Assembly (NCBI RefSeq): GCF_040529065.1
Contig: NZ_CP132343.1
Location: 2,418,001 to 2,482,000 of the forward strand
Source of the DNA: Xanthomonas sacchari
GTDB taxonomy: Bacteria > Pseudomonadota > Gammaproteobacteria > Xanthomonadales > Xanthomonadaceae
DNA: 64,000 bases
Direction of reading: 5' to 3'
The position numbers and the translations under genes were made by a program. The notes under the pieces were generated by a model, which saw only the letters and a list, made by a program, of their open reading frames with translations, was not told where the DNA came from and did no database searches. Positions 47,050-63,450 of the stretch are shown here, piece after piece (within the stretch, counting starts at the first letter, position 1; each line of letters begins with the position of its first letter).

Positions 47050-47430
47050 TTACTTGATGGTGGCCAGCTTCAGGCTGGACGGCGCGCTGACCTGGATTTC
47101 GGCGCGCGAGCTGTCCCGCTCGATCTTGCCGATCACGCACACGTCCTTGCCTTCCAGGGTTTCCGGCGGGAAGCCGAACTTGCTGCGGTCGGCGCCGGCG
47201 ATGCGGGCGGAGAAGGTGTGGCGCGGGAACATGCCGCCCATGTACAGGAAGGTCGGCTCGCCCTCGGAATTCTGCGCGTACTTGGCTTTCTCGACCTTGC
47301 CGCAGACCATGCCGTCCTTGCCGACGAACCGGGTGGCCATCTCCGGCGGGATCATCTGCTGGGACTGGGCGAAGGTGCTGGGGCTGGCGGCGAACAGCAG
47401 GACCAGCAGCATGGGAAAGCTCGGTTTCAT
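47050..47430 (-). CDS. Small secreted protein, OB-fold-like, upstream of chemoreceptor 3
   Basis: A 126-residue protein with a clear signal peptide (MKPSFPMLLVLLFAASPSTFAQ). The mature part (DGMVCGKVEKAKYAQNSEGEPTFLYMG, then FSARIAGADRSKFGFPPETLEGKDVCVIGKIERDSSRAEIQVSAPSSLK) alternates strands in a way that recalls small OB-fold proteins; the two cysteines (GMVCGK and DVCVIG) could form a disulfide. No family name is certain. It lies 100 bases before chemoreceptor 3 and directly under the best FliA-type promoter of the window, so it is expected to be made with the flagellar late genes. A periplasmic partner of the receptor is a guess. Confidence 0.8.
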   Translation of the reverse strand: MKPSFPMLLVLLFAASPSTFAQSQQMIPPEMATRFVGKDGMVCGKVEKAKYAQNSEGEPTFLYMGGMFPRHTFSARIAGADRSKFGFPPETLEGKDVCVIGKIERDSSRAEIQVSAPSSLKLATIK

Positions 47431-47492
47431 GGAACGACTCCTAGAGGGCGGGGGGATGAAGTGAGGGCTGTGTGATACCGGCCACTCTTCAG

Positions 47493-47519
47493 CTATCGGC
47501 CTGAAACCGGTTAACTTGA
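47493..47519 (-). promoter_or_regulatory. FliA-type promoter of the secreted-protein/chemoreceptor 3 unit
   Basis: On the minus strand: TCAAGTTA-N11-GCCGATAG, close to the sigma-28 consensus in both boxes. The start codon is ~62 bases downstream. Confidence 0.85.
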
Positions 47520-47552
47520 TTCTCACAAGTGATAAACAGTTCGCATTTCAAT

Positions 47553-60245: not shown

Positions 60246-60305
60246 TACGTCGTTGGTCGTAAGACGGTTCCCGACGCTGTCTGATTCATTTCCCTACGTG
60301 GCTCC

Positions 60306-62675
60306 TCACGCGGTCAGCGGCTGCCATTCGGTGCCGATCGCGTCGGCGATGGCCTGCGCGTTCGGCTGAGATGCCTGCGTGGCATGCGACGTCGCAGCGG
60401 TGGCCGAATGGCCGGCCACCACCGTGGCGACGAAGGCTGGGGCAGGGGTGGCACGCGTGGCGTGCTGTTCCAATCGAAACACAGCCACCGCGTCGCTCAA
60501 CTGCGCGGCCTGGTCCTCCATCGAGCGTGCCGCGGCGGTGGCTTCCTCGACCAGCGCAGCGTTCTGCTGGGTGCTCTCGTCCATCTGCGTCACCATGCGG
60601 TTGACCTGCTCGATGCCGGCTGACTGCTCCTGCGAGGCCGCGGAGATCTCGCCCATGATGTCGGTCACGCGGCCCACCGAGGCCACGATCTCCTGCATGG
60701 TCTGGCCGGCGCGCTGCACCAGCTGGGCGCCGGTGGCGACGCGGCCGACCGAGTCGTCGATCAGGCCCTTGATCTCCTTGGCGGCATTGGCCGAGCGTTG
60801 CGCCAGCGTACGCACTTCGCTGGCGACCACGGCGAAGCCGCGGCCCTGCTCGCCGGCACGGGCGGCTTCCACCGCGGCGTTGAGCGCCAGGATGTTGGTC
60901 TGGAACGCGATGCCGTCGATCACCGAGATGATGTCGGCGATCTTCATCGATGCGCTCTCGATGCCGCTCATGGTGTCGACCACCTGGCCGACCACTGCAC
61001 CGCCTTGCGAGGCGACTGCGGCGGCACCGGCGGCGAGCTGGTTGGCCTGGCGTGCGTGCTCGGCGTTCTGCTTGACCGTGGCGGTCAGTTCTTCCATCGA
61101 GGCGGCGGTCTCTTCCAGGCTGGCCGCCTGCTGCTCGGTGCGCTGCGACAGGTCGCTGTTGCCCTGGGCGATTTCGGTGGCGGCGCTGTGGATGTCGCCG
61201 GCGGCACGCTGGATACGGCCGACGATGTCGGCCAGGCGCTCGGCGGTGCCGTTGGCGTCGTCGCGCATGGTGGCGAAGATGCCGTGGAAGTCGCCGTGCA
61301 TGCGCGCGCCGAGATCGCCGTCGGCCAGCGCGCTGAGCAGCCGCGAGACCTCGGCGATGCTGATCGCGTTAGCGTCGAGCAGGCCGTTGAGTTGCTGCGC
61401 CAGCATCAGGAAGAAGCCTTGCTTGCCGGTGCGATCGATGCGCTGCGACAGGTCGCCGGCGGCGGCGCTGCGCACCACCGCGGCCACTTCCGCTTCCACC
61501 CGGGTCTCGGCGGTGCGGTCGCGCCATTCGCAGACGAAGCCCAGGTGCGCGCCCTCGGCATTGCGGATGGCGGAAATCTCCTGGGCGATGCAGACCTCGC
61601 GATAGCGGACCTCGCGCTGCGCCGCGCCTTGCCGGTCCAGCCGCTGGTAGATTTCCGCGTCTTGCGAGTTGCCGACTTCCAGCAGCGCCACCGACTGGCC
61701 CAGCAGCGGCGCGGAACGGTCGAACGCCGGCGCGCAGGCGCGGATGTCCTCGGCGTGGGTCTGCAGCAGGGTCTGCAGCGCGGTGTTGGCGTAGATGATG
61801 GTCAGGTCGGGATCGGCGATGTACATGCCGGTGGAGGCGTTGTCCAAGGCGGTGCGGATGCGCAAGTTCTCCGCGGCGACGCTGCGTTCGCGTTCGATGC
61901 GCTCGCGCAGTTCGCGCTGCATCCGCGCCAGCGCCGCCATTAGGCTGCGCCCATGCCTGGCGGCGACCGGAATCGGCTGATCCAGGCGGCCTTCGGCGAT
62001 GTGCTGGGCGGCGTCCATCGCCACCCGCGGCTCGCCGCCGAGCAACTGCGCGACCGAGCGCAGGATCCAGGCCGCGGCCGCGGCCAGGCACAGCACGGCC
62101 ACCAGCACCGCGCCGGCCTGCTGCCAGGTGGCGCGCTGGCTCTGCTGTTCGGCGGCTTTGCGGCTCTGCTCGTTCAGCGCCAGGATGCTGTCGCTGATCG
62201 TGTCCATCTCGCTTTCCAGCCGAGTGAACTGCGCGGTGAAGTCCGCATAGGCGGCGTTGCTGTCGCCGTGGGTCTCGGCCAGCGTCACCACCTTGTCGGC
62301 GGCGGCGATGTAGCGCTGCAGCGCCGGCCCGGCGGCATCCAATTGCGCGCGCAGGGTGCCGTCCAGCGGCAGCTTCTGGTTGTCGTCCAGCGCCTTGCGG
62401 AATTCGCCGGCGTGTTCGCCCAGCGCCGCACGGGCCGCCTTGACCCCGTCCGCATCCTGCCGCGCCGACGCCAGGAGCGCAGCGGTGACATCGCCGCGCA
62501 GGGCGTCGTGCATCATGTCGGCCTGCATGTGGTTGCGCAGCGCGTCCGAAGAGGTGACCTGCGCGGCGACCGAGCGCAACAGGCCTTGCTGGGCGCCGTA
62601 ACCGACCCCGCCCAGTGCGAGCAGGGCGAGCACCGCCACCAGCACCAGGATCCCGAGCATATGCATGATTTTCAT
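60306..62675 (-). CDS. Chemoreceptor 8, helical periplasmic domain plus PAS, altered tail
   Basis: A 789-residue receptor. First helix ILVLVAVLALLALGGVGYGA, periplasmic helical domain (~30-185), second helix AGAVLVAVLCLAAAAAWIL, HAMP, then a PAS domain (~270-390: NLRIRTALDNASTGMYIADPDLTIIYANTALQ to GFVCEWRDRTAETRVE) closely related to that of chemoreceptor 3. The signalling domain differs from its neighbours at ESASMKIADIIS. The C-terminus reads EWQPLTA, which looks like a decayed WQEF tail lacking the phenylalanine. Its gene begins 13 bases after an outer-membrane-protein gene and has no promoter of its own, so both form one unit. Confidence 0.93.
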   Translation of the reverse strand: MKIMHMLGILVLVAVLALLALGGVGYGAQQGLLRSVAAQVTSSDALRNHMQADMMHDALRGDVTAALLASARQDADGVKAARAALGEHAGEFRKALDDNQKLPLDGTLRAQLDAAGPALQRYIAAADKVVTLAETHGDSNAAYADFTAQFTRLESEMDTISDSILALNEQSRKAAEQQSQRATWQQAGAVLVAVLCLAAAAAWILRSVAQLLGGEPRVAMDAAQHIAEGRLDQPIPVAARHGRSLMAALARMQRELRERIERERSVAAENLRIRTALDNASTGMYIADPDLTIIYANTALQTLLQTHAEDIRACAPAFDRSAPLLGQSVALLEVGNSQDAEIYQRLDRQGAAQREVRYREVCIAQEISAIRNAEGAHLGFVCEWRDRTAETRVEAEVAAVVRSAAAGDLSQRIDRTGKQGFFLMLAQQLNGLLDANAISIAEVSRLLSALADGDLGARMHGDFHGIFATMRDDANGTAERLADIVGRIQRAAGDIHSAATEIAQGNSDLSQRTEQQAASLEETAASMEELTATVKQNAEHARQANQLAAGAAAVASQGGAVVGQVVDTMSGIESASMKIADIISVIDGIAFQTNILALNAAVEAARAGEQGRGFAVVASEVRTLAQRSANAAKEIKGLIDDSVGRVATGAQLVQRAGQTMQEIVASVGRVTDIMGEISAASQEQSAGIEQVNRMVTQMDESTQQNAALVEEATAAARSMEDQAAQLSDAVAVFRLEQHATRATPAPAFVATVVAGHSATAATSHATQASQPNAQAIADAIGTEWQPLTA

Positions 62676-62688
62676 CGGTGTGGCCCGA

Positions 62689-63450
62689 TCAGAAACGGAA
62701 GGACAGGCCCGCGCCGAGCGCGTGGTCCGGCGAACGGTCGTTGAGGCCGCGGCTGTACACCACGTCCAGTTGCACGTCCTGACTGAGCAGCCAGGCCGAG
62801 CCCACGTCTAGCAGGGCGATGGTGCCGCCGTCGTCGGCATGCGCGATCTGCGGCAGGGCCAGTTCCACGAAGGAGCGGGTGCGGTCGTTCCAGGCCTTGC
62901 CCAGCACCACGCCGAAGATGCCGGCGGTGTAGCGATGGCCGTTGTCGCCTTCGTCGCGGATCACGCCCGGCATCATGCCCAACGAGACGCTGTCGCTGAG
63001 TTCCCATTCGGCTACCAGACGGAACGACGGGCGGGCACCGCTGCCGCGCACGTCGCGTGCGCCGCTGGGCAGGTCCACATGCAGCAGCCAGGCCAGCGAG
63101 GCGCCGCCGAGCTCGCTGGCCAGGTGGTGCTTGAGGCCGAGCGAGATGTCGGAGAAGCCGGAGACGTCGTCGCCGACCGGGACGTCGATGGTCTGCCAGC
63201 CGTCGGTTTCCACGCGCAGTTCCCAGCTCGGGCCGATGCCGTAGCGGAACAGGGTCGGCGTGGCGTAGCCATCGACATCGCCGTCGCGTTCCCAGGCCAC
63301 GCTGGTTTCCACCTGCAGGCGGCGGTCGCCGACGGTGAGGCTGGATTCCACGAAGTCGGGGCGATCGGTGGCGATCGGCTCGGCTTCGGCGTGCGCCCCT
63401 CCCGCAAGGCCGAACAGGGTCAGACAAGTGGCTAGAACGACTGGCTTCAT
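62689..63450 (-). CDS. Outer-membrane beta-barrel protein upstream of chemoreceptor 8
   Basis: A 253-residue exported protein with a signal peptide (MKPVVLATCLTLFGLAGGAHAEAE). The mature sequence is built of alternating strands (LQVETSVAWERDGDVDGYATPTLFRYGIGPSWELRVETDGW, then FSDISLGLKHHLAS) and ends in GAGLSFRF with a terminal phenylalanine, as outer-membrane barrels do. It resembles the transporter family linked to phenol degradation (Phenol_MetA_deg); this is from pattern memory. It opens the unit with chemoreceptor 8 and is under a good FliA-type promoter. It might admit or sense the ligand of that receptor; the substrate is unknown. Confidence 0.8.
   Translation of the reverse strand: MKPVVLATCLTLFGLAGGAHAEAEPIATDRPDFVESSLTVGDRRLQVETSVAWERDGDVDGYATPTLFRYGIGPSWELRVETDGWQTIDVPVGDDVSGFSDISLGLKHHLASELGGASLAWLLHVDLPSGARDVRGSGARPSFRLVAEWELSDSVSLGMMPGVIRDEGDNGHRYTAGIFGVVLGKAWNDRTRSFVELALPQIAHADDGGTIALLDVGSAWLLSQDVQLDVVYSRGLNDRSPDHALGAGLSFRF

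What the first reader, a model, noticed from the sequence alone, without database searches (positions are those of the whole stretch)
47050..63450. Three chemoreceptors are led by an exported partner protein in the same unit
The secreted OB-like protein (47050-47430) precedes receptor 3, the thioredoxin-like anchored protein (51268-51771) overlaps receptor 4 by four bases, and the outer-membrane barrel (62689-63450) lies 13 bases before receptor 8. In each case the FliA-type promoter is in front of the partner, not the receptor. Receptors 3, 4 and 8 are also exactly the three visible receptors with a PAS domain. This repeated pattern suggests a class of PAS receptors that work with envelope accessory proteins; I know of no description of it.
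Basis: partly seen in the sequence, partly recalled or inferred. Interest (0 to 1): 0.75.

Follow-up and report, generated by a model that had tools for sequence, protein, structure and literature searches.

The report
Chemoreceptors paired with envelope partner proteins
Three bacterial taste receptors each travel through evolution with their own exported helper protein, and one of these pairs turns out to be a widespread, apparently undescribed membrane sensor coupled to thioredoxin-like, copper-chaperone-like or tiny one-helix partners.

Summary
In detail: three of the twelve receptors in this Xanthomonas-type cluster have an exported protein encoded directly in front, FliA-like sites lie before the partner, and these are the three with a PAS domain. 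The reading as a "class of PAS receptors" fails: the partner follows the input domain. In 61 of 61 genomes with the OB protein it sits 11-111 bp before a receptor with receptor 3's kind of sensor, but 8 of these receptors lack the PAS; 11 of 33 PAS receptors in 20 chosen loci have no partner. Receptor 4's partner, a divergent DUF6436 relative with five invariant cysteines, belongs to a widespread unit: a six-helix membrane sensor with conserved E/H residues, mostly without PAS outside Xanthomonadaceae, preceded by a DUF6436-like protein, a SCO1/SenC protein or a one-helix peptide (73 of 80 best-matching named-genome loci; in a less selected class sample 12 of 26 directly upstream and 4 more nearby or beside a broken copy; and others). 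I infer a redox- or copper-linked envelope input, comparable to RegB-SenC. The barrel-receptor 8 pair is real but looser (15 of 21). Interaction and ligands are untested.

The parts
47050..47430 (-). OB-fold exported protein (126 aa, signal peptide by eye, two Cys invariant in 13 relatives), partner of receptor 3
   Evidence: alignment A3; predicted structure (pLDDT 74), Foldseek E 8.9e-5
44568..46949 (-). Receptor 3: 4HB periplasmic sensor, HAMP, PAS, HAMP_2, MCPsignal
   Evidence: Pfam; start
45774..46124 (-). PAS of receptor 3; Glu at the place of the Aer2 heme-ligand His
46998..47044 (-). GC-rich hairpin between OB stop and receptor 3 start
47495..47519 (-). FliA-like site before OB
   Evidence: pattern partly drawn from it
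51268..51771 (-). Membrane-anchored Trx-like protein with five Cys invariant in 33 aligned partners (C77, C79, C128, C156, C158), divergent DUF6436 relative; partner of receptor 4
49064..51271 (-). Receptor 4: six-helix membrane sensor, PAS, HAMP_2, MCPsignal
   Evidence: Pfam; start
50567..51229 (-). Six-helix membrane sensor with conserved E89, H91, H120, H121, H149, E156 and YRDW
50195..50527 (-). Aer2-type PAS of receptor 4, both His of the FHxxxxHQ stretch and the Trp kept
   Evidence: 3VOL E 2e-41
51817..51841 (-). FliA-like site before the Trx-like gene
62689..63450 (-). Outer-membrane barrel (PF13557), partner of receptor 8
   Evidence: (E 2.2e-20)
60306..62675 (-). Receptor 8: 4HB-like sensor (PF12729 22.3 bits, below its cut-off 27), PAS, HAMP_2, MCPsignal
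61515..61862 (-). PAS of receptor 8; heme-ligand His not kept
63553..63577 (-). FliA-like site before the barrel

Best explanation
Each partner is the envelope half of its receptor's input module. Shown: OB with the 4HB sensor of receptor 3, the Trx/DUF6436-like protein with the six-helix sensor of receptor 4, and (less strictly) the barrel with the sensor of receptor 8 stay next to each other across genera, while for the first two the cytoplasmic PAS comes and goes. Inferred: the OB protein binds something in the periplasm and docks on the 4HB bundle in the way binding proteins dock on Tar or Trg (recalled); the barrel lets in or presents receptor 8's stimulus at the outer membrane; and in receptor 4 the anchored Cys-rich protein passes a redox or copper state to a cofactor held by the conserved His/Glu of the six-helix domain. 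The heme-type PAS found on this receptor in Xanthomonadaceae would then be a second, cytoplasmic oxygen input in the same receptor. One FliA-type promoter before the partner would keep partner and receptor together in expression.
For: OB next to an R3-like receptor in 61 of 61 OB genomes of 198 searched, PAS absent in 8. Six-helix receptors: partner in 24 of 30 family loci, 17 with and 7 without PAS; of the 6 without partner 5 have lost the EHF..HH motif (four of the five are one genus). 73 of the 80 returned named-genome loci have a Trx-like or one-helix partner. In the class sample 12 of 26 loci have DUF6436-like or SCO1 genes directly upstream and 4 more have one nearby or beside a broken copy. 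Of the 12 genomes (of 369) with an above-cut-off DUF6436 gene 8 have it directly beside a six-helix gene and 1 with one gene between. Five invariant Cys in 33 Trx-like sequences; E/H residues invariant in the 18 six-helix domains of A1. One-helix peptides with pN below pS in six of seven pairs. regA and/or regB is cotranscribed with senC in group 1 systems (PMC9147068, passages).
Against: Adjacency is not interaction. Nothing shows a cofactor in the six-helix domain. 10 of 26 class-sample loci have no recognised partner (three are one genus, one has no room upstream). The A1 set of 18 was picked from 25 aligned, and the G136 sequence left out lacks the E and HH. The one-helix form has no Trx head, so the head cannot be needed for signalling everywhere. 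The barrel occurs without an R8-like receptor in 6 of 21 genomes, and receptor 8-like receptors seen next to it all have the PAS, so for that pair sensor and PAS are not separated. In three of the eight PAS-less OB receptors the sensor is only 24-29% like receptor 3's. A hairpin lies between OB and receptor 3.
Confidence: 0.6

Rival explanations
1. PAS receptors form a class that works with envelope partners.
For: In this cluster the three PAS receptors and the three partnered receptors coincide.
Against: Partner kept without PAS and PAS without partner (11 of 33 in 20 chosen loci; L009, L015 in the own genome); three unrelated partner families.
Confidence: 0.05
2. The Trx-like, SCO1-like and one-helix partners are assembly factors that load a metal or heme, or set a disulfide, in the six-helix sensor, and take no part in signalling.
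For: [quoted passage not shown] PF02630 genes beside seven six-helix genes, one of them broken; partner missing where the sensor motif is lost.
Against: The one-helix form has a Cys near its end and no Trx head, yet is kept next to the receptor.
Confidence: 0.35
3. The partners are separate flagellar-regulon envelope proteins that share only a promoter with the receptor.
For: FliA-like sites before the partners; hairpin between OB and receptor 3; barrel without R8-like receptor in 6 of 21 genomes.
Against: The OB-R3 pair stays together where it is away from CheW (G117); a barrel-R8-like pair lies away from the chemotaxis cluster in G022; the six-helix pair recurs in distant taxa and loci.
Confidence: 0.2

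Closest known systems
RegB/PrrB sensor kinase with SenC/PrrC (SCO1) in Rhodobacter
   Same: Membrane sensor gene cotranscribed with a copper-binding SCO protein (PMC9147068, passages); here PF02630 genes sit before seven six-helix genes, one broken, one of the others a histidine kinase with PAS and HisKA
   Different: Output is a chemoreceptor in most cases; partner is DUF6436-like or a one-helix peptide in the named-genome set; relation of the two membrane domains not tested
Aer2-type heme-PAS receptors
   Same: Receptor 4's PAS aligns to 3VOL with the heme-ligand His and the Trp kept
   Different: Receptor 4 adds a six-helix membrane sensor and an envelope partner; PAS of receptors 3 and 8 lack the ligand His
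HtrVIII of Halobacterium (six-helix MCP proposed to bind heme; PMC13401364, passages)
   Same: Six membrane segments in front of an MCP output, proposed cofactor-based oxygen sensing
   Different: No envelope partner mentioned in the passage; homology not tested here
CetA-CetB bipartite receptors (PMC12442639, abstract and passages)
   Same: Receptor and sensor encoded as a pair of overlapping genes whose products interact
   Different: CetB is a cytoplasmic PAS protein; here the partners are exported or membrane-anchored
Periplasmic binding protein with Tar/Trg/CtpL (recalled)
   Same: Exported protein that would present a stimulus to a helix-bundle sensor
   Different: OB protein and barrel are not binding proteins of ABC type

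Membership tests
DUF6436 (PF20029) | Score over Pfam's curated cut-off | tested here: not met
   window protein E 0.49, 10.6 bits against 27.3; partners of other taxa L181, L195, L214, L197, L202 pass
DUF6436 (PF20029) | Profile relationship and shared cysteines | tested here: met
   hhalign 96.4%, E 1.1e-9 between A4 and A5, Cys aligned; five Cys invariant in 33. Filed as a divergent relative, not a member
Thioredoxin fold | Fold match to solved thioredoxins | tested here: inconclusive
Thioredoxin fold | CxxC active site (recalled) | tested here: not met
   CxC at 77-79
SCO1/SenC | PF02630 and CxxxC (motif recalled) | tested here: not met
   window partner has neither; some six-helix relatives elsewhere have such partners
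Aer2-type heme PAS | Heme-ligand His (H234 of P. aeruginosa Aer2, PMC13401364 passage; that it is the first His follows from spacing to the recalled W283) | tested here: met
   receptor 4; receptors 3 and 8: not met
Aer2-type heme PAS | Heme bound | not testable with these tools
   needs protein
OB fold | Fold match | tested here: met
   Foldseek E 8.9e-5, prob 1.00, TM-score by query 0.47, to aminoacyl-tRNA synthetase chains that carry an OB domain (recalled); model pLDDT 74, the five models ranging 46-74; no sequence match
Phenol_MetA_deg barrel (PF13557) | Pfam cut-off | tested here: met
   74.2 bits against 22
Chemoreceptor with periplasmic partner | Partner binds sensor and changes signalling | not testable with these tools
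   only genomic linkage shown

The most novel reading that the evidence does not exclude
A widespread sensor module without a Pfam family: a six-helix membrane domain whose conserved His/Glu bind copper or heme, completed in the envelope by one of three interchangeable subunits (DUF6436-like, SCO1-like, or a one-helix Cys peptide), feeding MCPs and at least one histidine kinase, and in Xanthomonadaceae joined to a heme PAS so that one chemoreceptor reads envelope redox or copper and cytoplasmic oxygen together.
Probability: 0.4. Interest if true: 0.78.

Novelty: new variant of a known kind. Interest (0 to 1): 0.6.

Why it matters
Many chemoreceptors have no known signal. A partner gene that is inherited with the sensor tells where to look: redox or copper for the six-helix family, a periplasmic OB protein for receptor 3, an outer-membrane port for receptor 8. 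For the six-helix sensors it makes signal identity directly testable by deleting a single small gene, and it offers the DUF6436 family, a domain of unknown function, a possible job. It also separates two things that neighbour each other in one genome, PAS and partner.

Tried and rejected
PAS as class marker: rejected. A fourth partner before the eleventh receptor (L001:9635-10024): rejected, no Pfam match, not called as a gene, and that receptor has no PAS. Truncated Trx gene in Stenotrophomonas as a pseudogene: set aside after the same one-helix form turned up in 23 loci with pN below pS in most pairs compared. A profile iteration that drew in receptors through a sequence with N gaps was discarded after its first pass; the L111 partner was picked from a later pass by its cysteine pattern and entered the profile. 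Solved-structure searches with the OB and Trx profiles: nothing convincing. My first receptor 3 PAS query was out of frame and was repeated. In one search I read several loci on the wrong strand; repeated.

Literature: no paper found on DUF6436 with chemoreceptors (one paper, an unrelated mention, passage), on SCO1/SenC with receptors (listing only), on Trx-like or small membrane partners of receptors (listings), or on partners in Xanthomonas (listings). Searches served other points. Passages of PMC8694187, PMC9777591 and PMC8547431 were seen and not relied on. Only open-licence PMC papers are held, so absence is weak.

Limits: at most 8-9 receptor candidates were scored per genome and the match lists were cut, so orthologues may be missed. 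The 20 loci and the 30 set C were chosen, not drawn. The 80 loci are the best 80 of 366 relatives, thus tilted to the query's family. PAS calls in bulk used a profile of the three window PAS domains and can miss other PAS types; Pfam checked nine PAS-less receptors. The SCO1 profile was built from six of the genes it then found; Pfam is the independent check. In one search three Trx or short partners (L086, L087, L096) were missed by my gene caller and added. Of the 48 Trx-like heads at least L196 is in a broken frame and L211 is cut by the contig end. For L179 no usual start codon was found far enough before the helix.
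Full report
What is there. The window lies in a 4.96 Mb chromosome with 33 MCP-domain matches. Twelve receptors lie head to tail on the minus strand from genome position 2457520 to 2492997, eight of them whole in the window. The genus is probably Xanthomonas in the wide sense: a same-genus genome (G058) has a contig of the same length as one of Xanthomonas sp. F10 (inferred). OB 47050-47430 precedes receptor 3 by 100 bp, the Trx-like gene overlaps receptor 4 by four bases, the barrel ends 13 bp before receptor 8. 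PAS is found in receptors 3, 4 and 8 and in no other of the twelve. Five exact matches to TNAAG-N14-GNCGAT occur in 64 kb, three of them before the three partners, none between partner and receptor; with one mismatch there are 37 against 8.9 expected, some inside repeated receptor coding sequence. The pattern was drawn by eye partly from these sites.

Does the partner go with the receptor? OB: found in 61 of 198 genomes of the family. In 61 of 61 a receptor with receptor 3's kind of sensor follows, 11-111 bp on; the sensor match is weak (24-29% identity) in G033, G100 and G073. R3-like sensors without OB were seen in at least two genomes, G175 (stops inside) and G069 (28% identity) (lists cut). 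Barrel: 21 of 198 genomes; 15 of 21 have an R8-like sensor 10-116 bp on, one of them (G192) broken; of the other six one has a different receptor-like region next (G120), one holds only a fragment (G186). The 11 genomes with a close receptor 8 all have the barrel. G134 has neither. In G022 the pair sits away from the chemotaxis cluster among unrelated genes. Trx-like: 11 of 198 by single sequence, 24 of 30 six-helix loci by profile, one of these the short form and one interrupted by an assembly gap.

Is PAS the common factor? No. Of the 61 OB-linked receptors 52 have the PAS, 8 lack it (G117, G158, G072, G091, G191, G033, G100, G073) and one contig ends too early to tell. Seven of the eight were rescanned with Pfam: all seven have 4HB_MCP_1 and none a PAS; a HAMP_N3 stands in its place. 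Of 24 partnered six-helix receptors in the family set 17 have PAS and 7 do not (two of the seven rescanned). Among 33 PAS receptors in 20 chosen loci 22 have a partner and 11 do not; the 11 have R9-like, Cache_3-Cache_2 or unassigned sensors, for example a receptor between receptors 4 and 3 in G085 whose PAS is 84% identical to receptor 4's. For the barrel pair no PAS-less example was seen, so there the two are not separated. In the own genome L009 and L015 have PAS and no small exported partner (L015 has a large secreted-looking gene 250 bp upstream), while L005 (a PBP-like protein below cut-off and a second secreted-looking protein upstream) and L008 (Gcw_chp downstream) are non-PAS receptors with exported-looking neighbours.

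Three different PAS states. Receptor 4's PAS matches P. aeruginosa Aer2 (3VOL E 2e-41) with the FHxxxxHQ stretch and the Trp kept. In receptor 3 the first His is Glu and only the second is kept; in receptor 8 both are gone. The heme ligand of Aer2 is given as H234 in PMC13401364 (passages); that this is the first His follows from its spacing to the Trp, whose number 283 I recall. Receptor 4 is thus a likely heme oxygen sensor in the cytoplasm; receptors 3 and 8 are not by this mark.

The one-helix form is a peptide with a W-rich helix and a Cys near the C-terminus, ending 16-109 bp before the six-helix match; the likeliest starts give mostly 38-66 residues, a few longer, and none was found for L179. 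A profile from 17 of them found 6 more in the same place and no hit over 12 bits elsewhere in 636 kb. Over the last 36 codons pS/pN are 0.46/0.05, 0.38/0.10, 0.41/0.06, 0.43/0.26, 0.58/0.20 and 0.60/0.26 in six pairs (one sequence used three times); a seventh pair, 0.07/0.05, is too alike to tell. Pfam has no family for three of them. It resembles the helix of some long forms (13-19 bits in L147, L148, L152), so long and short may be one subunit with and without a head.

A less selected check: 369 genomes of the class, 25 with a six-helix domain, the own one included. Of 26 loci outside the own genome 6 have a DUF6436-like and 6 a SCO1 gene directly upstream; Pfam puts SCO1 over its cut-off in all six and also beside a seventh, broken copy; two have DUF6436 downstream and one has it one gene away. 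Ten have none recognised. Turned round, 12 of 369 genomes have DUF6436 over the cut-off; in 8 it lies directly beside a six-helix gene, in one with a gene between, and in three no six-helix gene is within the fetched 1.5 kb. One SCO1-linked gene is a histidine kinase. In the family set the five loci without the EHF..HH motif (G136 and four of one genus) have no partner found; the sixth partnerless locus keeps the motif and lies near a contig end. These are few independent events.

How it most likely works. Shown: linkage, conserved residues, independence from PAS for two pairs. Inferred: the partner is the envelope part of the input. For the six-helix kind the repeated choice of Cys-rich Trx-like or SCO proteins, the conserved His/Glu in the membrane domain and the senC-regB precedent point to a redox or copper signal passed to a membrane cofactor; whether the partner signals or only matures the sensor is open (rival, 0.35). 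OB and barrel give less: a periplasmic docking protein and an outer-membrane port are the plain readings. The OB protein has two Cys invariant in 13 relatives (C43, C98) and two OB copies lie before the receptor in eight genomes.

Verdict. A sound observation, a wrong common factor, and a lead that grew: receptor 4 and its partner represent a broad pair for which I found no description in the searches named under Tried and rejected.

Noticed in passing
L080:13046-15751, L081:12787-15492, L082:8612-11323, L083:7321-9993: A receptor with a Cache_3-Cache_2 sensor (Pfam on L080) and a PAS close to receptor 4's stands between receptors 4 or 5 and 3 in relatives but is missing in the window genome; no partner.
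   Followed up: partly
L009:4290-6089 with 6114-7007: A two-PAS receptor lies 25 bp after a gene that looks like heme O synthase (by eye), suggesting a link to respiration.
   Followed up: no
L005:5715-9499: Non-PAS receptor behind two secreted-looking genes, one a weak PBP_like_2 match (E 1.7e-4, below cut-off).
   Followed up: partly
L008:6141-6914: Gcw_chp protein (PF09694, E 1.1e-36) 5 bp after a dCache receptor.
   Followed up: partly
L003:10409-11473: Pectate lyase gene (PF00544) about 460 bp upstream of a 4HB receptor on the same strand.
   Followed up: no
L118, L119, L133-L138: Two OB genes in tandem before the receptor in eight genomes.
   Followed up: partly
L066/L095 and L079: Barrel without receptor 8 (G153) and a 50-residue barrel remnant where receptor 8 is gone (G186).
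   Followed up: partly
L234, L235: DUF6436 gene downstream instead of upstream of the six-helix receptor.
   Followed up: no
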